A stretch of DNA of 64,000 nt from Bifidobacterium sp. (GTDB lineage Bacteria > Actinomycetota > Actinomycetes > Actinomycetales > Bifidobacteriaceae), in assembly GCA_022640915.1 (NCBI GenBank), contig JALCCT010000001.1, forward strand, positions 62,001 through 126,000. Reading direction: 5' to 3'. Below, in pieces: positions 5,644 to 15,657 of the stretch. The notes beneath the pieces are model-generated. The model ran no database searches and was not told the origin of the DNA. It worked only from the letters and a program-made list of their open reading frames with translations. Position 1 is the stretch's first letter. Every line of letters begins with the position of its first letter. A program made the position numbers and the translations under genes.

Positions 5644-5813
5644 GGCACCGATTATCGCACAGCGGATTGACTCGCCGCTGGCCGCGCATAGCCGGTAAGA
5701 CATATGCGTGACTAACAGAAAACGGCTGAATCGCTCGGCACGAAAACACTCAATACCATGTCGGGTTCGCCAACCGCCGCCGCTTGTCTCGAAACTTCGC
5801 TAGCGTCACAGTC

Positions 5814-7241
5814 ATGGCGAAAAGCGCGATGCAATACGTGTGCACGGAATGCGGCTGGAACGGGCCGAAATGGTACGGCCGCTGCCCGCAGTGCGGCCAA
5901 TGGGGAACCATCGAGGAATTCCACGAGGCACGTCCGGCAGCAGCCACGCGCACGGCAGCCCCAGGGCGCACCTCGCGCACCTTGGCCAACCACACCGGCG
6001 ACTTGGGCGCCACGCCTATCACCGACATCGACACGCACGGCGTGCAGCGCATACCGACCGGATTTGGCGAATTCGACCGCGTGCTCGGTGGCGGCATCGT
6101 GCCCGGCTCAGTCGTGCTGGTGGCCGGCGAGCCGGGCATCGGCAAATCGACGCTGCTGCTGGAGACAGCGGGTCATGTGGCACGTTACGTGGCGCGCAGC
6201 CAATCGCCCAAATCGGTGCTGTATGTCTCCGGCGAGGAATCGCAGGCCCAGGTCAGGATGCGGGCTTCGCGCATCAACGCGGTCGAGGGCAATCTGCTGC
6301 TGGCCTCCACTACGGATCTGTCAACAGCGCTCGGCTTGATCGAGCAAGAGAAGCCGGCGCTGGTCATCGTTGATTCGGCGCAGACCATAGTTTCTCAAGA
6401 CGTGGATGGCATCGCTGGCGGCTCGACGCAGGTGCGCGAGGTCGCCAGCGCCTTGATCGACAGCGCAAAAACAATGGATATTCCGGTGTTTCTGGTGGGC
6501 CATGTAACCAAGGACGGCTCGATCGCGGGCCCGCGCACGCTGGAGCATGTCGTCGACGTCGTCTGCCAGTTCGAGGGCGACGCGCAGACCGCGCTGCGCA
6601 TGCTGCGCGCCGTGAAGAACCGCTTCGGTCCGACCGACGAAGTCGGCTGCTTCGATATGAGCGGCGACGGTATCGAGGAGGTACCCGATCCCTCCGGGCT
6701 GTTTTTGTCCACCTCCAACGAGCCGACCGAGGGCACCTGCGTCACGTTCACACTGGACGGCCATCGCAGCCTGCCCATTGAGGTACAGGCCTTGGCGACC
6801 GCTTCGGCATTGCCCACTCCGCGGCGCGCCACCAACGGCATCGATGCGAACCGCTTGGCGATGCTCATTGCCGTGCTCTATAAACATGGTCATGTGAACC
6901 TCTTGGCCAAAGATGTGTACGTCTCAACAATCGCTGGCGGAATGGCGAAAGAGCCAGCGTGCGACTTGGCCATCGTCTCCGCGCTGGCGAGCGCCGCCGC
7001 CTCACGCCCGATCGCACGCACGACGTGCGCCATCGGCGAGATCTCGCTCACCGGCCAAGTGCGCCCGGTGCCACGCTTGGCGCACCGCCTGACCGAGGCG
7101 GCCCGGCTGGGATTCACCACAGCGGTTGTGCCGGTGCCGCGCGGGCGCCGCGGCACCGCAGCCGCACCTGCCGGCATGCGCGTCATCGAAGCCGCCTCGC
7201 TGCGCGACGCGTTGGCGGCTCTAGGCGTCACTGCACGGTAG
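5814..7241 (+). CDS. radA: DNA repair protein RadA (Sms)
   Basis: Branch-migrating ATPase that processes recombination intermediates with RecA. 475 residues from ATG 5814. Order: zinc finger with Cys 10, 13, 24 and 27; RecA-like ATPase with Walker A GEPGIGKST at 105-113; the RadA-specific KNRFG near 268; C-terminal Lon-protease-like domain from about 300. No Shine-Dalgarno precedes it; TAGCGT ends 7 nt before the ATG, so the mRNA may be leaderless. An in-frame TTG at 5784 is a less likely start because it extends past the family's normal N-terminus. Confidence 0.96.
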   Translation: MAKSAMQYVCTECGWNGPKWYGRCPQCGQWGTIEEFHEARPAAATRTAAPGRTSRTLANHTGDLGATPITDIDTHGVQRIPTGFGEFDRVLGGGIVPGSVVLVAGEPGIGKSTLLLETAGHVARYVARSQSPKSVLYVSGEESQAQVRMRASRINAVEGNLLLASTTDLSTALGLIEQEKPALVIVDSAQTIVSQDVDGIAGGSTQVREVASALIDSAKTMDIPVFLVGHVTKDGSIAGPRTLEHVVDVVCQFEGDAQTALRMLRAVKNRFGPTDEVGCFDMSGDGIEEVPDPSGLFLSTSNEPTEGTCVTFTLDGHRSLPIEVQALATASALPTPRRATNGIDANRLAMLIAVLYKHGHVNLLAKDVYVSTIAGGMAKEPACDLAIVSALASAAASRPIARTTCAIGEISLTGQVRPVPRLAHRLTEAARLGFTTAVVPVPRGRRGTAAAPAGMRVIEAASLRDALAALGVTAR

Positions 7242-7594: not shown

Positions 7595-7690
7595 TACAAG
7601 AATCGATCACTGAGATTCCTTCGAATCGAGCTGCCCAAACAACGACTAATGTCGTCGAGCTTGTGCGTTCAATGGGACAAGAGAAGAACC

Positions 7691-9040
7691 ATGTCTATAT
7701 CGTCCAACAATGAAATTCAAGGGTTAACCGTGCATCATCAGCAGGGTTTGCGCTGGAGCGTTCCGATTCTGCTGACGGGCGAGGGGGCTTCGCAGCTGGG
7801 CGACAATCTGTTCATGCTGGCGGCGGACTGGTATATCGCCAAACTGACGCAGAACGCGGCTATCATCGGCATCTTTTCGGCGTTGTTCGCTTCCACCAGC
7901 CTGATCATGGTATTCACCGGCGGGGTGGCCGACCGGCATCGGCGCATGCCATTAATGCTCGCGGTCGACGCGGTGCAGACGGCCATTATGGTGGCGGCGA
8001 CTTTCCTGTATGCGGCGATTCCTCCCACGGTGGTGGGCTTGGCCTCCATAGTGCTGCTGACGCGGCTGGTCGGCATGTTCTTCATGCCAGCGGTCAACGC
8101 GCTGATCCCGCAGCTGGCGGACGACGATTCGCTCGAACGGGTCAACGGCATGTACCAATGCGTGTCCATGTCCATGGAGATGGCGGGTACGCTCATCGGC
8201 GGCGCCATTGTGGCTCTGCTGCCGCTGGCGGCGTTCACCGCGATCGACGCCCTGACGTTCCTGGCGTCCTTCGCATGCGTGGGCGTGCTGATGCGCCTGC
8301 ATGTGGAGACCTACGAGCCCGATGAGGACGACGACGCGCACGGCTGGCGTCAGGGGATCGATTATATCCGCGGCAACAGCCTGATGCACGGCGTCATCAT
8401 GCTCGCCCTCGTGGTCAATTTCGCGCTCGGCCCGGTGATGAGCCTGGATGTGCTGTGGGTGCAACAGGTGCTGCACGCCTCCGCGTTCGTGTACAGTTCC
8501 ATCCAGATCGTGCTGATGGTCGGCGTCATCTTGGGCAATGTCGCCGTCTTCGCGTTGCAGCATGCGCCGTTCAAGGCCAAGCTGATCATCCCGCTGCTGG
8601 TCATGGCCGGGTCGATCGCGACTCTTGCGCTGTTTCCCTCCGTATGGCTCACGTTGGCGATGATTCTCGTGCTGGGATTTGCTGCAGGAATCGTGAATGT
8701 GACGGTCTCAACCACTGTGCAGCGTTTCACGCCCGAGCATTTGCTGGGCAGGGTCAACGGCGCGCTGCTCACCGGCACGCAGGCCGCGCTGCCCATCGGC
8801 ATGGCGCTCGGCGGCGTCATTGCCCAGCACGTCGGAGTCGCCAACGTATTCCTGGGCGGCGGGGCTATTGCCATTATCGCGGCGCTTGTGGCGGCCACGC
8901 GCCCATGGAATGTGCCGGAAGAGGAGACTGAAGACGATGATGAGCCTGGCGAGTCTGAGGGAACTGAGACTGCCGAAACGCTCGCAACTGCTGAATCCGA
9001 AGCAGTCGACGCAGCTCAGGATACGGTACCTAACAACTAA
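7691..9040 (+). CDS. Major facilitator superfamily exporter
   Basis: 449 residues from ATG 7691, preceded by AAGAGAAG. The hydrophobicity pattern fits about 12 membrane segments. The loop after helix 2 carries the MFS motif A as GGVADRHRRMPLML, and the overall pattern resembles the MFS_3/EntS-like drug and siderophore exporters, so it probably exports a small molecule by proton antiport. The last ~40 residues are a very acidic cytoplasmic tail (EEETEDDDEPGESEG...). The other start at 7649 adds 14 residues with no better ribosome binding site. The substrate is unknown. Confidence 0.85.
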   Translation: MSISSNNEIQGLTVHHQQGLRWSVPILLTGEGASQLGDNLFMLAADWYIAKLTQNAAIIGIFSALFASTSLIMVFTGGVADRHRRMPLMLAVDAVQTAIMVAATFLYAAIPPTVVGLASIVLLTRLVGMFFMPAVNALIPQLADDDSLERVNGMYQCVSMSMEMAGTLIGGAIVALLPLAAFTAIDALTFLASFACVGVLMRLHVETYEPDEDDDAHGWRQGIDYIRGNSLMHGVIMLALVVNFALGPVMSLDVLWVQQVLHASAFVYSSIQIVLMVGVILGNVAVFALQHAPFKAKLIIPLLVMAGSIATLALFPSVWLTLAMILVLGFAAGIVNVTVSTTVQRFTPEHLLGRVNGALLTGTQAALPIGMALGGVIAQHVGVANVFLGGGAIAIIAALVAATRPWNVPEEETEDDDEPGESEGTETAETLATAESEAVDAAQDTVPNN

Positions 9041-9210: not shown

Positions 9211-10767
9211 ATGACCACCGAGAGGGCCGCTGATTTCGCATCGTGGGCTTGCCGATATTCGCAACGCACCAACCGATCGTTGGCCGGAGCGCGTGTCGCG
9301 CTGCCAGAGGTGGCCGCATTGCCATCATCCACAACACAGCGTCCATCGCAGGCGCAATCGCCGGCATTCCCAATGCCGACAGCAGCGCAACTGTGGGGCA
9401 TGGTACCTGTCGAAGCCGGCCAGCGGCAACAGGACGAGAGCGACCCCGGCCAGTTCCTCATCAATGCGACAACGCCCCTCGATCAGGTGCCGGACATGCG
9501 CTTGGCGAGCGGACTCGAAGCCATGGATTACGCCCAGGAGCATATGGTCGTGCTGCGCGCACTGATGGCCACTCTGCGCAGCAACGTCGATTTCACGGGC
9601 GTGCGTATTGCCGTCTGCCTGATACTCGAGCCGAAAACCGCCGTGCTGCTGCGCGCCCTGCATGCGGCCGGCGCGATCGTCGGTGTGCTCGGCGGCCCGG
9701 ATACGACCGACCAACGGGTGGCCTGCCAGCTGCGCGCCGAAGGCATCGTCGTCGAGGCTGATACCAGCTGGGACGCCCGGCAGACTCATGAGGGTGCGCT
9801 GCGGCTGCTCGACGAGATACGGCCCGACATCATCATCGACGACGGCGCGAGTTTCGCCCGTCTCGCCTCGCTCGAACGCCCTGAGCTGATGCGCGACCTA
9901 ATCGGCGTGGCCGAAGAGACCACCAGTGGCGTGCGCGCTTTCCAGGCAATGCAAGACGCCAGCGAGCTGAACTACCCAGTGGTGGCAGTCAATGACAGCG
10001 CGCTCAAAACCAGCTTCGACAACGCGCACGGCACCGGAGAGACCTGCGTGACCACGCTGCAGCGAATCCTGGGCGAGCACGTTTTTGCAGGCGCCAAAGT
10101 CGCCGTCATCGGCTACGGTCCGGTCGGACGCGGGTTTGCCACGCGCGTGCGCGCGCTCGGCTCGCAGGTCACCATCTGCGACACAGACCCGGTGGCCTGC
10201 CTGAAGGCAGTGTTCGAAGGCTTCGACGCGCAGAATATCGACGACGCGCTGCCCACCGCCGATATCGTCATCTCCGCGACCGGCGTACGGCATACCGTTA
10301 CGCTCGACCATCTCAAGCTCATGCGCGGCGGTGCCGTGCTGAGCGTCATTGGCGGCATCGCAAACGAGATTGCGCTCGATGACATCCCGGACTTCACGCC
10401 GCAGACCGGCCGCGAGCGTGTCGAACTGGCCGTGCCCGGCGGCCCGATAATCACACTCATCGCCGATGGGGATGGCGTGAACTACACCGTGGGCGGCGGC
10501 AACCCCATCGAGATCATGGATTTGAGCTTCGCCGTCCAGGTCAGCGCCGTGGCCTATCTGCTGCAGCATCGCGGGGAACTCAATCCAGGCCTGTTGCGGC
10601 TCGACGCGCAATCCGACCGTCGCATCGCGGCGATCGCGCTGGAGGCGCGTGGCTGCCATGCCAGCCACGCGCACGCGGATAACGGCTACGACTGGCGGCT
10701 GACACGCTTCGCCGAAGAGGATGCCGCGCGCAAGCGCGCACGCAAGGCAACCGAGGAATCCGCATGA
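9211..10767 (+). CDS. Divergent S-adenosylhomocysteine hydrolase homologue
   Basis: 518 residues from ATG 9211, with AAGGAG 10 nt upstream. The fold is AdoHcyase: EETTSGV (Glu236 = human Glu156), NDSALKTSFDN with Lys266, Asp270 and Asn271, and the NAD-binding GYGPVGRG at 301-308. Other catalytic positions are changed: human His55 aligns with Ile138, STQD containing Asp131 reads TTDQ (165-168), and His301 aligns with Gly382. The first ~90 residues and the last ~70 do not resemble AdoHcyase. Normal SAH hydrolysis is therefore doubtful; it may act on another nucleoside-homocysteine. It overlaps the next gene by 4 nt (ATGA). Confidence 0.8.
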   Translation: MTTERAADFASWACRYSQRTNRSLAGARVALPEVAALPSSTTQRPSQAQSPAFPMPTAAQLWGMVPVEAGQRQQDESDPGQFLINATTPLDQVPDMRLASGLEAMDYAQEHMVVLRALMATLRSNVDFTGVRIAVCLILEPKTAVLLRALHAAGAIVGVLGGPDTTDQRVACQLRAEGIVVEADTSWDARQTHEGALRLLDEIRPDIIIDDGASFARLASLERPELMRDLIGVAEETTSGVRAFQAMQDASELNYPVVAVNDSALKTSFDNAHGTGETCVTTLQRILGEHVFAGAKVAVIGYGPVGRGFATRVRALGSQVTICDTDPVACLKAVFEGFDAQNIDDALPTADIVISATGVRHTVTLDHLKLMRGGAVLSVIGGIANEIALDDIPDFTPQTGRERVELAVPGGPIITLIADGDGVNYTVGGGNPIEIMDLSFAVQVSAVAYLLQHRGELNPGLLRLDAQSDRRIAAIALEARGCHASHAHADNGYDWRLTRFAEEDAARKRARKATEESA

Positions 10768-12257
10768 ACACGAACACAGCCACCTCTCCCGCCGCCAGCA
10801 GCGACCTTGCGCGCGAAGTCACCATCTATTCAGCCAAGCTCGTGATCCCCGTGACCGGGCCGGTGATTGTCGACGGCGCGGTCGCGGTGCACGGCGATCG
10901 CGTGATGCACGTTGGCAGGCGCCGCTGGGTGCTGGACGCAGTGAACCAGGAAAGCACGGCAGACGCAGCGATCAGCGAATGGCACTGGGACGGCGTGCTC
11001 ATGCCCGGCCTGATCAACGCGCACACCCACTTGCAATACACCGGCATGGAATCGGTCGGCGCGGGCACATACGAGCATTTCCATGATTGGGAGCTAGCAT
11101 TCAACAAGGTCTACGCGCTAGCAAAAGACAATCAGCCGTGGAAGCCATGGGCCTATCGCGGCGCGCGCATGCTCGTGGAAGCGGGCACCACGGCAGCCGC
11201 CGATATCGTCACCGACTTGCAGGCCTCCGACGCTTTGGGATCACAAGGATTGCACGGCATCTCCTACTGGGAGGTGATGGGCTGGCATAACGCCGAGTGG
11301 CAAGCCAAAGGTCGGCTCGAATTGCGCCGCCAGCTGCGCGAGATGAGCCGCAGGCGGCTGCCCAGCCTCGGCATCAGCCCGCATGCACCGTACACGCTGG
11401 AGTCCGAGCCCTTCATCGATCTTCCTGACATCGCCCGGCAGCTCAATATGCGACTGCACATCCATCTGGCGGAGACGCCGCTGGAGGCCGGCAGCTACCC
11501 GCCGGTGCTCACCACGTATTCCGGCGACGACTGGAACCATGAGATGTGGGACAGCTACCGCCAGCTCAAGGCAAGCGGCAAAGGCGCTTCCGCCATCCAG
11601 TTCGTCGATCAGCTGGGCTCGCTGGGCCCAGACGTGCATATCGCGCACGGCGTATGGGCCGACAAGGAAGACCGCCGCATTCTGCGCCAGCGCGGCGTCG
11701 GCGTGGCACTGTGCCCGCGCTCGAACCGCATCACCAACACCGGCAAGGACGCGCCGGTGCGCGAATACCTCGAAGAGGGCAATCTACTCAGCGTCGGCAC
11801 CGATTCGCTCTCCAGCTCGCCCAGCCTCGACGTGCTCGACGATGTGGCGATGCTCTACGATCTGGCGCGCGAGCAAGGCTACACGGGTGACGATCTGACG
11901 CATCGGCTCATCCGTATGATGACGCTGGGCGGAGCCGAGGCGATGGGCATGCATGTGGGCGTTAACCGCATCGGGCAGATCAACGCAGGCGCCTTGGCGG
12001 ACCTCGCTTTCTTCGATATCCCGACCGTTACCTCCTCGCCCGCGAACATCGAGGAGACCATCGAAACATTGGTGCGTCACGGGGCCGGAAGCAACCGCGC
12101 GACCGTGCTTTCCGGCAGGCTGGTGTACAACAACGGCGCATTCGGAAACAATGTCGGCAATGGTTCCAACAGCATATCTGGCAGCGCCAACGAGGCTGCA
12201 GGCATCGGCACGACACCCGCAGCCACAGCCACAACTCTTCCCAAGGAGCCGCAATGA
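10764..12257 (+). CDS. Amidohydrolase, SAH/MTA-type adenosine deaminase
   Basis: 497 residues, amidohydrolase superfamily. Metal ligands are all visible: HTH at 87-89, His in HIHLAET near 232, His in HGVWAD near 294, and the catalytic Asp in GTDSLSSS near 346. The family closest by motif is 5'-methylthioadenosine/S-adenosylhomocysteine deaminase, which removes the 6-amino group of the adenine ring to give S-inosyl-homocysteine; aminofutalosine-type deaminases share these motifs. It overlaps both neighbours by ATGA, so translation is coupled to the SAH hydrolase-like protein. The last 40 residues are low-complexity Asn/Gly/Ser/Thr. Confidence 0.82.
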   Translation: MNTNTATSPAASSDLAREVTIYSAKLVIPVTGPVIVDGAVAVHGDRVMHVGRRRWVLDAVNQESTADAAISEWHWDGVLMPGLINAHTHLQYTGMESVGAGTYEHFHDWELAFNKVYALAKDNQPWKPWAYRGARMLVEAGTTAAADIVTDLQASDALGSQGLHGISYWEVMGWHNAEWQAKGRLELRRQLREMSRRRLPSLGISPHAPYTLESEPFIDLPDIARQLNMRLHIHLAETPLEAGSYPPVLTTYSGDDWNHEMWDSYRQLKASGKGASAIQFVDQLGSLGPDVHIAHGVWADKEDRRILRQRGVGVALCPRSNRITNTGKDAPVREYLEEGNLLSVGTDSLSSSPSLDVLDDVAMLYDLAREQGYTGDDLTHRLIRMMTLGGAEAMGMHVGVNRIGQINAGALADLAFFDIPTVTSSPANIEETIETLVRHGAGSNRATVLSGRLVYNNGAFGNNVGNGSNSISGSANEAAGIGTTPAATATTLPKEPQ

Positions 12258-12793
12258 GTATTCCTTTGAATGACATGAGCCCATTCGCTCGGGACACGGC
12301 GCTGAGCCTCGGCCTCGAAGCCCACCCAGAAGGCGGCTGGTACACGCGCGACTGGCAGAGCCCGCACACCGATTCAGCCAGTGGGCGCCCGCTGGCTTCG
12401 CTGATCTATTTTCTGCTGCCCGAGGGCGATGCGAGCGCCTGGCATAAAGTCGACGCCGACGAAATCTGGCTGTGGCATGGGCCAGCCGCAGTCACGCTGG
12501 AATTCGGCGGCACTGGCGACCAGCCCGAAGCCGACCCTGCGTTGCGTACGCGCGTTGTACTCGGTTCTGGGCTCTCCGGTGCACGCTTGGCCGGCGATGA
12601 AAACCCCAACGATCATAAAATCAATAGCCGAGCAACCTCTGCAGCGTCGTCCGCAGCACTCCATCATGCTCCCGCAGGCCATGTCATTGCGCGGGCAGGA
12701 TGCTGGCAGCGCACACTCCCCGGGGCAGGCGACGCGCTCGTCTCATGCGTAGTCTCTCCCGGCTTCGTGTTTGAAGGCTTCACGCTCGAGTAG
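12254..12793 (+). CDS. Cupin, DUF985 family
   Basis: 179 residues. Matches the DUF985 cupin family: LEAHPEGGWYTRDW at the start, SLIYFLLPEGDASAWHKVDADEIW with the paired His/Glu typical of the metal site, and a C-terminal SCVVSPGFVFEGFTL. DUF985 proteins have a cupin barrel and no settled role. It overlaps the deaminase gene by ATGA, so it probably acts on the same metabolite. A Ser/Ala-rich insert (about 119-140) interrupts the barrel. SD of the coupled start is AAGGAG. Confidence 0.85.
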   Translation: MSIPLNDMSPFARDTALSLGLEAHPEGGWYTRDWQSPHTDSASGRPLASLIYFLLPEGDASAWHKVDADEIWLWHGPAAVTLEFGGTGDQPEADPALRTRVVLGSGLSGARLAGDENPNDHKINSRATSAASSAALHHAPAGHVIARAGCWQRTLPGAGDALVSCVVSPGFVFEGFTLE

Positions 12794-13044
12794 CGTTCCT
12801 CGCTGCGACGGGGCAGCTCACGCATGCCGCCGCAATACAACGTTATTCAAAACACAATCATGCTCAACTTATTCGTATTCACCATTCTGATAACCCGCTA
12901 TCAGCGTTTACTATATGCGCGACGAATCATATGCAGCATCCATCGGCTACACTGATTTCGTTATCGCTTATCTTCGATACGCAACTACGGGCGGGGCATT
13001 TGCACGGTATACCACGCCGAGCGCCCCAGGAGAGAGGAAACATC
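12794..13044. promoter_or_regulatory. Intergenic region with inverted repeat before the ABC transporter
   Basis: 251 bp, AT-richer than the flanks. The inverted repeat CTGATA-ACCCGC-TATCAG lies at 12887-12904, the shape of a dimeric repressor site. TACACT at 12947-12952 may be a -10 element. No hairpin terminator follows the cupin gene, so the transporter could be co-transcribed as well as having its own promoter. Confidence 0.5.
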
Positions 13045-13914
13045 ATGATCGGGAAAGGCTCGAAAGGCTTCGTACGCACGCTGGTTGCGGGGGCGAGCAT
13101 CATGGCCCTGGCATTCTCGGCGGCCTGTGGCTCGGGACAGTCAGCAGCGGGCAGCGGCGCGAAATCCGGTGATATCACGCAGCAGACCATTAAGCCCGGC
13201 AAACTCACCATTGCAACAGGTGAGCCAGCTTACGAGCCGTGGGTGATGAACGACAAACCGCAAAGCGGCAAAGGGTTCGAGGCTGCTCTGGCCTATGCGG
13301 TCGCGGGTAAGCTGGGCTTCTCCAAAAGCGATGTGGTCTGGACGCGCACGACCTTCGATACCGCAATCGCCCCCGGCCCCAAGGACTGGGATCTGAACAT
13401 CCAGCAGTTCGGCATCACCCAGGAACGCAAGAAAGCCGTTGACTTCTCCAGCAGCTATTACAACGATACCCAGTCGGTGATTGTCAAGAAAGACAGCAAA
13501 TACGCCGATGCGACGAGCCTGTCTGAGCTCAAGGGCGCTAAGGTCGGCGCGATGATCGGCACCGAAGGCTACGACTACGCCAAGAAGCTCATCACCGACG
13601 ACGTGCAGACTTTCAACGACGATGCCGCTGTGGCACAAGCGCTCGATGCCGGGCAGATCGACGCAATGGTCGCGGGTACGGTCGAAAGCGTCTATATCGT
13701 CCAATCCGGACAGGTCAAGAACGCCAAGGTGATTGGCAAGGTTCCAGGTTCCCAGGATCATAGCGGCACCGGCATCGTGCTGCCCAAGGATTCCAAGCTC
13801 ACCGCGCCGGTGACCAAGGCGATCGACGAGCTCAAAGCTGATGGCACGCTCCAAAAGCTGCAGGATACTTGGCTCGCCGAGTACACGACCGACCTGACCG
13901 AACTCGCGAAGTGA
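13045..13914 (+). CDS. ABC transporter substrate-binding lipoprotein, polar amino acids
   Basis: 289 residues from ATG 13045, with AGAGAGGAAA upstream. Signal peptide with lipobox LAFSAAC (Cys28 lipidated) followed by a Ser/Gly linker. The mature part is a family-3 solute-binding protein (ATGEPAYEPWVMNDK..., KGFEAALAYAVAGKLGF..., lobe motif DFSSSYYNDTQSVIVKKDS). These bind polar amino acids such as cystine, glutamine or arginine. It leads the transporter operon, 16 nt before the permease. Confidence 0.93.
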   Translation: MIGKGSKGFVRTLVAGASIMALAFSAACGSGQSAAGSGAKSGDITQQTIKPGKLTIATGEPAYEPWVMNDKPQSGKGFEAALAYAVAGKLGFSKSDVVWTRTTFDTAIAPGPKDWDLNIQQFGITQERKKAVDFSSSYYNDTQSVIVKKDSKYADATSLSELKGAKVGAMIGTEGYDYAKKLITDDVQTFNDDAAVAQALDAGQIDAMVAGTVESVYIVQSGQVKNAKVIGKVPGSQDHSGTGIVLPKDSKLTAPVTKAIDELKADGTLQKLQDTWLAEYTTDLTELAK

Positions 13915-13930
13915 TTGCGTGAGTGGGCAC

Positions 13931-14803
13931 ATGGATTCAGCAGCGGCCGCATTGAACGAAGCATATACTGTCAGCAAAGTCGAACTCGACCGGCGGGGCT
14001 TCCGGCACAGCCAGCAGATCAAATCGGTGATCACCAGTATTGTGAGCACGATTGTGCTGGCGGCTATCATCATTGTCGGGCTGGAGCTTTCACCCGGCTG
14101 GAGCCATGTCAAAGAGACCTTCTTCTCGCCTGAGTACTTCGTCAAATCTCTTCCCGACGTGGCCAAAGGCCTGTGGCTCAATGTGCGCGTGCTGGTCGTC
14201 GCAGTGATCGGCGTCGCAGTGCTGAGCACTTTGCTGGCGCTCATCCGCACCAGCCGCACACCGATCCTCTTCCCACTGCGCGCGCTCGTGGCGATCTATA
14301 CCACCGTGATGCGCGGCGTGCCGATCATCGTCGTGCTGTATCTAATCGGTTTCGGCATTCCCGGGCTGGGCCTATTCGGACGCATCGACCCGTCGATTCT
14401 GGGCACGATCGCCGTGGTTATGGGCTACAGCGCCTATGTTTCCGAAGTGCTGCGCGCCGGTTTCAACGATGTGCATCCCTCGCAGCGCGCCTCGGCCCGC
14501 TCGCTGGGGCTCACTTCTGGCCAGACGACCCGGATGGTCGTCATTCCACAGGCGCTGCGCTCAGTCGCCCCAGCGCTTATGAACGACTTCATCTCCATGC
14601 AGAAGGACGTCGGCCTCATCTCCGTGCTCGGCGCAGTTGACGCTGTGCGCGCAGCGCAAATCGATGTGGCCAGCACCTACAACTTCACCCCATATGTGGT
14701 CGCCAGCATCCTGTTCATCCTGCTGAGCGTGCCGTTCATCGTACTCAACGACTGGTATTCAGACAGGCTGCGCAAGCGCGAGCTGAGCGGAGGGACGGTA
14801 TGA
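13931..14803 (+). CDS. ABC transporter permease, polar amino-acid type
   Basis: 290 residues from ATG 13931; an in-frame GTG at 13919 would give 294. Membrane segments begin near residue 35 with IVSTIVLAAIIIVGLEL and continue through the PF00528 domain, whose coupling motif is EVLRAGFNDVHPSQRASARS. One gene for the permease implies a homodimer. No good Shine-Dalgarno precedes either start. It overlaps the ATPase gene by ATGA. Confidence 0.92.
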   Translation: MDSAAAALNEAYTVSKVELDRRGFRHSQQIKSVITSIVSTIVLAAIIIVGLELSPGWSHVKETFFSPEYFVKSLPDVAKGLWLNVRVLVVAVIGVAVLSTLLALIRTSRTPILFPLRALVAIYTTVMRGVPIIVVLYLIGFGIPGLGLFGRIDPSILGTIAVVMGYSAYVSEVLRAGFNDVHPSQRASARSLGLTSGQTTRMVVIPQALRSVAPALMNDFISMQKDVGLISVLGAVDAVRAAQIDVASTYNFTPYVVASILFILLSVPFIVLNDWYSDRLRKRELSGGTV

Positions 14804-15657
14804 GCGACATCGACGAAACAACGGCCACGGCGGCTTCAACGGTTTCGGCAACAAGTGCGGAGACTTCGGTAGCGGCGGCCGGCTCAGATTCCGCGGCAAC
14901 TCCAGCGGCCGCAGACTCATCACTGCCCGTGCTGCGCCTCGACCAGGTGCGCAAATCCTTTGGTTCCGCCACAGTGCTTAACGGCATCTCCTTCGAGGTG
15001 AGGGAGCATGAAGTGGTCGCACTGCTCGGCCCCTCCGGTTCAGGCAAATCGACGCTGATGCGCTGCATCAACCTGCTCGAGCGCGTGGATGACGGCCAGA
15101 TTTGGCTGCGCGACTGCGACATCACCGATCCTCGGGTCAACCAAGATCGGATTCGTGCGCGTATCGGCGTCGTCTTCCAGCAGTTCAACCTCTTCCCGCA
15201 TATGTCAGTGCTCAAAAACGTTACGCTGGCCGCGCTCAAGGTGCTGCACTGGAACAAAGACCGCGCCAACGAGCGAGCGTTCGAGCTGCTCGACCGCATC
15301 GGCATGCGCAGCAAAGCGGACGCTTACCCCGATCAGCTCTCCGGCGGCCAGCAGCAGCGCGTCGCCATCGCCCGCGCCCTGATGAGTGACCCCGAATTGC
15401 TGCTGCTTGACGAGATCACCTCGGCGCTCGACCCGATGCTGGTGGGCGAAGTGCTCGACATGGTCTCCGAACTCAAGCAGAACGGCACCACAATTCTCAT
15501 GGCGACCCACGAAATGAGCTTCGCCCACCGTGCCGCCGACCGTGTAGTGCTGCTGCGCCACGGTGTCATTGCCCAGAATGGCACGCCGGCCCAGGTCATG
15601 GACGAATCGCAAGATCCTGCGACCAAGGAGTTCTTCAGCCACTTTCGCGGCTTGTAA
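14800..15657 (+). CDS. ABC transporter ATP-binding protein, polar amino-acid type
   Basis: 285 residues. Walker A GPSGSGKST near residue 76, Q-loop VFQQFNLFPHM, signature LSGGQQQR near 179, Walker B ELLLLDEITSALDP near 199. Ile replaces the common Pro in DEPTSALDP. The first ~45 residues are an unusual Ala/Thr/Ser-rich extension before the nucleotide-binding domain. It completes the transporter with the two genes before it and then converges on ribF. Confidence 0.94.
   Translation: MSDIDETTATAASTVSATSAETSVAAAGSDSAATPAAADSSLPVLRLDQVRKSFGSATVLNGISFEVREHEVVALLGPSGSGKSTLMRCINLLERVDDGQIWLRDCDITDPRVNQDRIRARIGVVFQQFNLFPHMSVLKNVTLAALKVLHWNKDRANERAFELLDRIGMRSKADAYPDQLSGGQQQRVAIARALMSDPELLLLDEITSALDPMLVGEVLDMVSELKQNGTTILMATHEMSFAHRAADRVVLLRHGVIAQNGTPAQVMDESQDPATKEFFSHFRGL

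What the first reader, a model, noticed from the sequence alone, without database searches (positions are those of the whole stretch)
9211..12793. SAH-hydrolase homologue lacking key catalytic residues, coupled to an SAH-type deaminase and a DUF985 cupin
Three genes overlap by ATGA, so they are translated together. The hydrolase homologue keeps the NAD site, Glu236, Lys266 and Asp270, but positions equal to human His55, Asp131 and His301 read Ile138, TTDQ (165-168, order swapped from STQD) and Gly382. The partner is an amidohydrolase of the SAH/MTA deaminase class. In Methanocaldococcus, SAH is deaminated to S-inosyl-homocysteine and an AdoHcyase paralogue cleaves that product. A similar salvage route, or one using another modified nucleoside thioether, is plausible here. 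The cupin may act on the sugar or homocysteine product.
Basis: partly seen in the sequence, partly recalled or inferred. Interest (0 to 1): 0.85.

Follow-up and report, generated by a model that had tools for sequence, protein, structure and literature searches.

The report
Import-coupled histidine-less SAH hydrolase module
Bifidobacteria and some other actinobacteria share a block of genes that joins an altered SAH hydrolase, lacking two histidines that normally hold the reacting water, to a deaminase-like enzyme, a small cupin protein and an amino-acid-type importer, and the block would likely take up nucleoside-linked amino acids and break them down, possibly by a new chemical route.

Summary
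The three genes exist as described. The hydrolase homologue lacks the equivalents of human His55 (Ile138) and His301 (Gly382), also His353 (Asn431), and so do the 120 closest listed relatives wherever they have letters. The protein keeps the NAD domain, the oxidation-site residues, and the E-x-K part of the H-x-E-x-K motif that marks inosyl-homocysteine-preferring enzymes. The bigger finding lies outside the given coordinates: the three genes are the front half of a six-gene block with a polar-amino-acid ABC importer (12931-15657). Hydrolase and amidohydrolase occur together in 57 of 189 Bifidobacteriaceae genomes and neither occurs alone; they are adjacent in all 18 loci fetched from five other actinobacterial families, in one as a single open frame. 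My best reading: an adenosyl amino acid is imported, deaminated, and its inosyl thioether is cleaved by NAD-driven elimination instead of hydrolysis, the cupin handling the product. This chemistry is inferred and untested. The window's genome also carries LuxS and an MTA/SAH nucleosidase, so ordinary SAH recycling would not need this block.

The parts
9211..10767 (+). SAHH-like protein, 518 aa, NCBIfam NF004009; histidine-less
9622..9624 (+). Ile138 codon, place of catalytic His55
9628..9636 (+). Glu140-x-Lys142, the E-x-K of the hypoxanthine-type nucleobase motif HxExK
   Evidence: motif meaning from PMC10978960
9841..9843 (+). Asp211 codon, equals P. furiosus Asp128 / human Asp131 (kept)
9916..9918 (+). 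Glu236 codon (human Glu156, kept)
10006..10023 (+). Lys266...Asp270-Asn271 (human Lys186, Asp190, Asn191, kept)
10354..10356 (+). Gly382 codon, place of gate/catalytic His301
10501..10503 (+). Asn431 codon, place of His353
10764..12257 (+). amidohydrolase of the MTA/SAH/adenosine deaminase structural group; His87, His89, His234, Glu237, His295, Asp347 invariant in 49 of 49 aligned sequences
   Evidence: the metal-site role of these residues is recalled
12254..12793 (+). Cupin_5 / DUF985 protein
12931..13914 (+). solute-binding protein, SBP_bac_3 (amino-acid type)
13919..14803 (+). ABC permease of the polar-amino-acid type
   Evidence: frame; matches the profiled permeases of G435 and L122 at similarity seen; the window gene itself was not profiled
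14800..15657 (+). ABC ATPase of the same importer
   Evidence: frame; relatives; G435 counterpart profiled; the window gene itself was not profiled

Best explanation
The three genes are the front half of a conserved six-gene block that joins an SAH-hydrolase homologue lacking both water-holding histidines to a deaminase-like amidohydrolase, a DUF985 cupin and an amino-acid-type ABC importer, and it would likely import an adenosyl amino acid such as SAH, deaminate it, and release the amino-acid thiol by NAD-driven elimination rather than hydrolysis. Inferred steps: (1) the binding protein catches the amino-acid end of the compound; (2) the amidohydrolase turns its adenine into hypoxanthine; (3) the SAHH-like enzyme holds the hypoxanthine with Glu140/Lys142, oxidises C3' with its bound NAD (Lys266, Asp270), takes the C4' proton with Asp211 and expels the thiolate, a leaving group that needs no acid; (4) without His55 and His301 water is not added back, so after reduction the product would be a 4',5'-didehydro-5'-deoxyinosine; (5) the cupin acts on that product. 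Shown: the genes, the residue pattern, its conservation, the linkage. Not shown: any substrate or reaction.
For: Residues. In mouse SAHH the attacking water is held by His55, Asp131 and His301, and the order is oxidation, C4' proton loss, homocysteine loss, water addition, reduction: PMC4647836 passages. E-x-K goes with hypoxanthine preference: PMC10978960 passages and one section. Amidohydrolase in the MTA/SAH/adenosine deaminase group. Linkage: both proteins in the same 57 of 189 genomes; adjacent in 18 of 18 fetched outside loci; one open frame in L120; six genes with gaps of -4, -4, 4, 2, -4 in L122. A DUF985 protein has a GDP-bound structure, 3LZZ (table line), and its sequence is a distant relative of this cupin (E 6.8e-5).
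Against: No assay. The importer is not always linked: it is absent from the fetched stretches L109 and L123, lies elsewhere or 1-3 kb off in some loci, and 137 bases separate cupin and binding protein in the window. The cupin is not next to the pair in G435, L110, L112 and L123. In AgmF, an SAHH relative that stops at a didehydro sugar, both histidines are kept and essential (PMC8599513 passages), so losing them is not a mark of a lyase. L123 has Gln in place of Glu236. The fold match does not discriminate inosine from adenosine (ties). No riboswitch points to SAH or SAM. NCBIfam scores of the amidohydrolase stay far below every equivalog cut-off. Two carriers, G001 and G002 (83-84% complete), show no LuxS, so a link to ordinary SAH recycling there is not excluded.
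Confidence: 0.38

Rival explanations
1. It is a working S-inosylhomocysteine hydrolase after all: other residues or ordered water replace the two histidines, and the block is a Methanocaldococcus-type SAH -> SIH -> inosine + homocysteine route fed by an importer.
For: E-x-K kept in every relative with letters there; deaminase-like partner; G435, L110 and L112 have an H-x-E-x-K SAHH with both histidines close by, which points to the same substrate class in that neighbourhood; an inosine-uridine nucleoside hydrolase gene lies near the pair in L123; 2 of the 57 carriers (G001, G002) show no LuxS.
Against: Both histidines that hold the attacking water are gone in every block member examined; in L110, L112 and G435 an enzyme with both histidines is already there; the window's genome has LuxS and an MTA/SAH nucleosidase, and 55 of the 57 carriers have LuxS.
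Confidence: 0.25
2. The SAHH-like protein is a 3'-oxidising enzyme for a different 6-oxopurine nucleoside: it makes or uses a 3'-keto nucleoside (epimerisation, or loss of the base) and the cupin works on the keto-sugar.
For: The residues for 3'-oxidation are kept while those on the 5' side (His55, His301, STQD) are changed; another histidine-less clade sits beside an ECF importer with a QueT-like subunit, not an amino-acid importer.
Against: The Bifidobacterium-type block has an amino-acid-type importer in most loci; Asp131, which takes the C4' proton in the related AgmF proposal, is kept.
Confidence: 0.22
3. The SAHH-like protein is a catalytically dead relative that senses NAD or nucleosides and regulates the partners.
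For: Loss of catalytic histidines.
Against: Lys266, Asp270, Asn271 and Asp211 are kept in the members examined from seven families, and one open frame joining it to an enzyme in L120 fits an active enzyme better.
Confidence: 0.07

Closest known systems
S-inosyl-L-homocysteine hydrolase / HxExK SAHH (M. jannaschii, P. furiosus, T. maritima) with DadD deaminase
   Same: fold, NAD site, E-x-K nucleobase motif, Asp/Glu/Lys/Asp/Asn active-site set, deaminase-like partner
   Different: both water-holding histidines and the hinge histidine replaced, STQD loop changed, about 90 extra N-terminal residues in the window protein, cupin and amino-acid-type importer in the same block
AgmF, NAD-dependent dehydratase of angustmycin A biosynthesis (PMC8599513, passages)
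   Same: SAHH relative that does not hydrolyse SAH and ends at a didehydro sugar
   Different: AgmF keeps and needs His56, Asp129 and His299; it works on angustmycin C in an antibiotic pathway
MTA/SAH/adenosine deaminases of the amidohydrolase superfamily (4f0r, 4gbd, TM0936)
   Same: fold, metal-site pattern
   Different: about 22-23% identity over the aligned model; below all NCBIfam equivalog cut-offs
DUF985/Cupin_5 proteins (YML079w, Atu3615, BbDUF985)
   Same: family
   Different: function of the family largely unknown (PMC8704077, passages; it cites a suggested phosphoglucose isomerase role for BbDUF985); here the gene sits in a block with purine-nucleoside-type enzymes

Membership tests
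AdoHcyase (SAHH) family | sequence family and fold | tested here: met
AdoHcyase (SAHH) family | Asp131, Glu156, Lys186, Asp190, Asn191 for oxidation and C4' deprotonation | tested here: met
   Asp211, Glu236, Lys266, Asp270, Asn271
functional SAH hydrolase | His55 and His301 | tested here: not met
   Ile138, Gly382
functional SAH hydrolase | hydrolysis of SAH | not testable with these tools
   needs an assay
S-inosylhomocysteine hydrolase | HxExK motif | tested here: not met
   IxExK: E and K kept, H lost
AgmF-type dehydratase | two essential histidines kept | tested here: not met
MTA/SAH/adenosine deaminase | fold and metal ligands | tested here: met
MTA/SAH/adenosine deaminase | score over an equivalog model | tested here: not met
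   NF005557 122 of 522 bits, NF012037 53 of 779
MTA/SAH/adenosine deaminase | deaminase activity | not testable with these tools
   needs an assay
Cupin_5 (DUF985) | Pfam model over cut-off | tested here: met
   PF06172 100.4 bits, cut-off 25
polar amino acid ABC importer | SBP_bac_3 binding protein with permease and ATPase | tested here: met
   binding protein PF00497 89.7 bits; permease and ATPase by similarity to profiled G435 genes
polar amino acid ABC importer | the amino acid or compound carried | tested here: inconclusive
   lysine/arginine/ornithine, cystine and glutamine models all score below cut-off

The most novel reading that the evidence does not exclude
An actinobacterial import pathway in which a histidine-less SAH-hydrolase relative works as an NAD-dependent nucleoside-thioether lyase: external adenosyl amino acids are imported, deaminated, and split into a thiol amino acid and a 4',5'-didehydro-5'-deoxyinosine that a DUF985 cupin then opens, giving a bacterial role to that largely unexplained cupin family.
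Probability: 0.25. Interest if true: 0.85.

Novelty: new variant of a known kind. Interest (0 to 1): 0.68.

Why it matters
Databases name these proteins adenosylhomocysteinase (names seen), and metabolic models may take from that a SAH hydrolase that the sequence argues against. If the reading holds, bifidobacteria and their relatives take in nucleoside-linked amino acids by a pathway with a new SAHH chemistry, and the DUF985 cupin family gets a testable role. The same two histidines are lost in several SAHH clades, and where I saw the neighbourhood an importer was often beside the gene, which hints at a second life of the SAHH fold in uptake pathways.

Tried and rejected
AgmF-like dehydration: rejected as membership because both histidines are essential there. 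SAH/SAM riboswitch control: no riboswitch at gathering threshold in the window (four tRNAs only) or in 26 further loci (one tRNA); L013-L018, L061, L111 and L124 were not scanned. The amidohydrolase beside one ECF locus (L070) first looked like a shared partner; it is imidazolonepropionase-like by my reading and matched in no other of the fetched ECF loci, so it is dropped. Histidine loss as one event: the nine f19 rows (L064-L071, L073) group with SAHHs that keep both histidines (100/99 for that group of 15), while the block proteins form a separate clade, so more than one loss is likely; the fork that nests them (84/63) is weak, the root is not fixed and no one-clade test was run. A genome search for the P0268 type in the class of G214 found nothing in 39 genomes at E <= 1e-100, with no positive control. 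Literature: 10 searches; no listed title or abstract start describes this block, but not every matching paper was listed and the library lacks most subscription journals. Papers seen only as found passages: PMC10978960 (plus its section 9), PMC8599513, PMC4647836, PMC11594714, PMC8704077, PMC10883770, PMC3914940, PMC13406329.
Full report
What is there. The window holds three frames with ATGA overlaps: a 518-residue SAHH homologue (9211-10767), a 497-residue amidohydrolase (10764-12257) and a 179-residue DUF985 cupin (12254-12793). After 137 bases come a family-3 solute-binding protein (12931-13914), a permease (13919-14803) and an ATPase (14800-15657). Upstream lie an MFS gene (7649-9040) and radA (5784-7241; this name is my reading, not a profile result).

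Residues. The alignment to P. furiosus SAHH is anchored on its HxExK motif; five other published numbers (128, 298, 299, 302, 348) then fall on the right letters (numbers from PMC10978960 passages). His55 -> Ile138, His298 (human 301) -> Gly382, Phe299 -> Ile383; Glu57 -> Glu140, Lys59 -> Lys142, Asp128 (human 131) -> Asp211, Glu153 -> Glu236, Lys183 -> Lys266, Asp187 -> Asp270, Asn188 -> Asn271. STQD (83-86) reads TTDQ. In the 120 listed relatives (of 975 over threshold), position 138 is Ile 88, Val 30, no letter 2; 382 is Gly 119, no letter 1; 431 is Asn 120; 140 and 142 are Glu and Lys in 118 of 118 with letters; 211 is Asp in 118 of 118; 266 and 270 are Lys and Asp in 120 of 120. In mouse SAHH the water that adds to the didehydro intermediate is held by His55, Asp131 and His301, while His353 contacts adenine through its main chain (PMC4647836 passages); so two of three water ligands are lost and the hinge change may mean little.

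Other histidine-less clades. The 120 listed relatives of the G435 protein (of 1778 over threshold) also lack His at 138 and 382 and have Asn at 431, with E-x-K kept in 120 of 120; apart from G435 itself I did not see their neighbourhoods. A third set, nine loci of one family (f19), has Pro or Ala at 138 and Gly or Ala at 382 but keeps His at 431. Seven of these nine lie beside an ECF importer with a QueT-like subunit; in L066 the contig ends, in L071 an SBF-type transporter gene follows (Pfam names were obtained for L070 and L071, the others by similarity to L070). The tenth locus fetched with them, L072, is a canonical SAHH. In the tree (47 rows) the 24 block-type proteins form one clade (100/98), the G435-type another (100/100), and the f19 rows group with canonical SAHHs (100/99 for that group of 15).

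The block in Bifidobacteriaceae. 57 of 189 genomes have the SAHH-like protein at E <= 1e-100 and 57 of 189 have the amidohydrolase at E <= 1e-60; the two sets are identical (compared in 48). The other 27 of the 84 genomes with any match have only weak ones (best E 2.6e-7, mostly residues 290-385, the NAD domain) and were dropped. LuxS is in 159 of 189, among them 55 of the 57 carriers; G001 and G002 (83-84% complete) are carriers without a LuxS match. In the 16 named loci, the amidohydrolase follows in 16 of 16, the cupin in 15 (the contig of L014 ends first), and the complete importer follows in order in 14 (in L015 it lies upstream, in L014 only binding proteins are seen, upstream; in L016 about 1.1 kb lies between). 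Two unnamed loci (L044, L045) have the cupin upstream instead.

Outside the family. The amidohydrolase was found in 8 of 256 genomes of the class of G276 and in 29 of 258 genomes of the order, 7 of them Bifidobacteriaceae; an even draw of 396 genomes of the phylum gave only the window's own and G435 at E <= 1e-60. I fetched 18 of these 30 outside places, not the other 12. The SAHH-like gene is next to the amidohydrolase in 18 of 18; the cupin in 14 of 18 (L111 is cut by the contig end; L110, L112, L123 show none); the three importer genes in 13 of 18 (L111 and L124 are cut, L112 shows only the binding protein at the edge of the stretch, none seen in L109 and L123; in L107, L108 and L110 about 1-3 kb of other sequence lies between). 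L123 has a sugar-type binding-protein gene (SBP_bac_8) some kilobases away instead. Position 138 is never His, 382 is Gly and 431 Asn in 18 of 18; Glu236 is kept in 17 of 18 (Gln in L123). In L122 all six genes follow with gaps of -4, -4, 4, 2 and -4. In L120 the first two proteins lie in one open frame of 1098 codons; a sequencing error that removed a stop is not excluded. G435, of yet another class, has the importer, an H-x-E-x-K SAHH that keeps both histidines, the histidine-less SAHH, the amidohydrolase (39% identical to the window's) and a GNAT gene in one run on one strand.

Setting in the genome. LuxS and a nucleosidase over the TIGR01704 MTA/SAH cut-off (107.8 against 73.8 bits, though under that of NF004079, 149.3 against 169) are present. 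The assembly is 78% complete and 1.76 Mb, and only this gene matched PF05221; an unseen canonical SAHH is not strictly excluded.

Mechanism. SAHH chemistry runs oxidation at C3', proton loss at C4', loss of homocysteine, water addition, reduction (PMC4647836). The block protein keeps what the first two steps need and lacks two of the three ligands of the water. Thiolate can leave without acid help (general chemistry, recalled), so a stop after elimination is a coherent proposal, and AgmF shows that an SAHH relative can end at a didehydro sugar (PMC8599513), though with both histidines essential. The E-x-K motif predicts a hypoxanthine base (PMC10978960) and fits a deaminase partner; the amino-acid-type importer fits an amino-acid tail. 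One DUF985 protein has a GDP-bound structure (table line in PMC11594714; the structure paper itself was not read), which at least permits a purine-nucleoside ligand.

Limits. No substrate is shown. The family labels f5, f20, f97, f101, f102 carry no names; f20 includes Atopobiaceae, because the contig length of G692 equals that given for the Atopobiaceae protein P0191.

Noticed in passing
L064-L071, L073 (unnamed actinobacterial genomes, family f19): A separate histidine-less SAHH clade (Pro/Ala at 138, Gly/Ala at 382, His431 kept) lies beside an ECF importer with CbiQ and a QueT-like subunit in 7 of 9 loci; possibly an import-coupled pathway for another purine-like compound.
   Followed up: partly
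L120 5319-8612: SAHH-like and amidohydrolase domains in one open frame of 1098 codons.
   Followed up: partly
L123: Block variant with Gln at the Glu236 position, a luciferase-like monooxygenase next to the amidohydrolase, an inosine-uridine nucleoside hydrolase gene nearby, no cupin match.
   Followed up: partly
P0125, P0126, P0127: Amidohydrolase with extra phosphoribosyltransferase-type Pfam domains; in the two sequences read (P0125, P0127) it runs into a PRPP-synthetase-like C-terminus after 'FFDIPV'; may be a chimeric assembly.
   Followed up: no
window 7649-9040: MFS gene between radA and the SAHH-like gene; among the loci seen only in this genome and in L003/L020; most other loci show radA directly upstream.
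   Followed up: no
L110 8738-11599, L112: H-x-E-x-K SAHH with both histidines close to the histidine-less pair; in L110 a gene scoring best with SAH/MTA-deaminase-type models follows it, in L112 an amidohydrolase match lies beside it.
   Followed up: partly
G001, G002: Two carriers of the block without a LuxS match; assemblies are 83-84% complete.
   Followed up: no
window 9169 / 9211: Two in-frame ATG starts for the SAHH-like gene, 14 codons apart; which is used is not settled.
   Followed up: no
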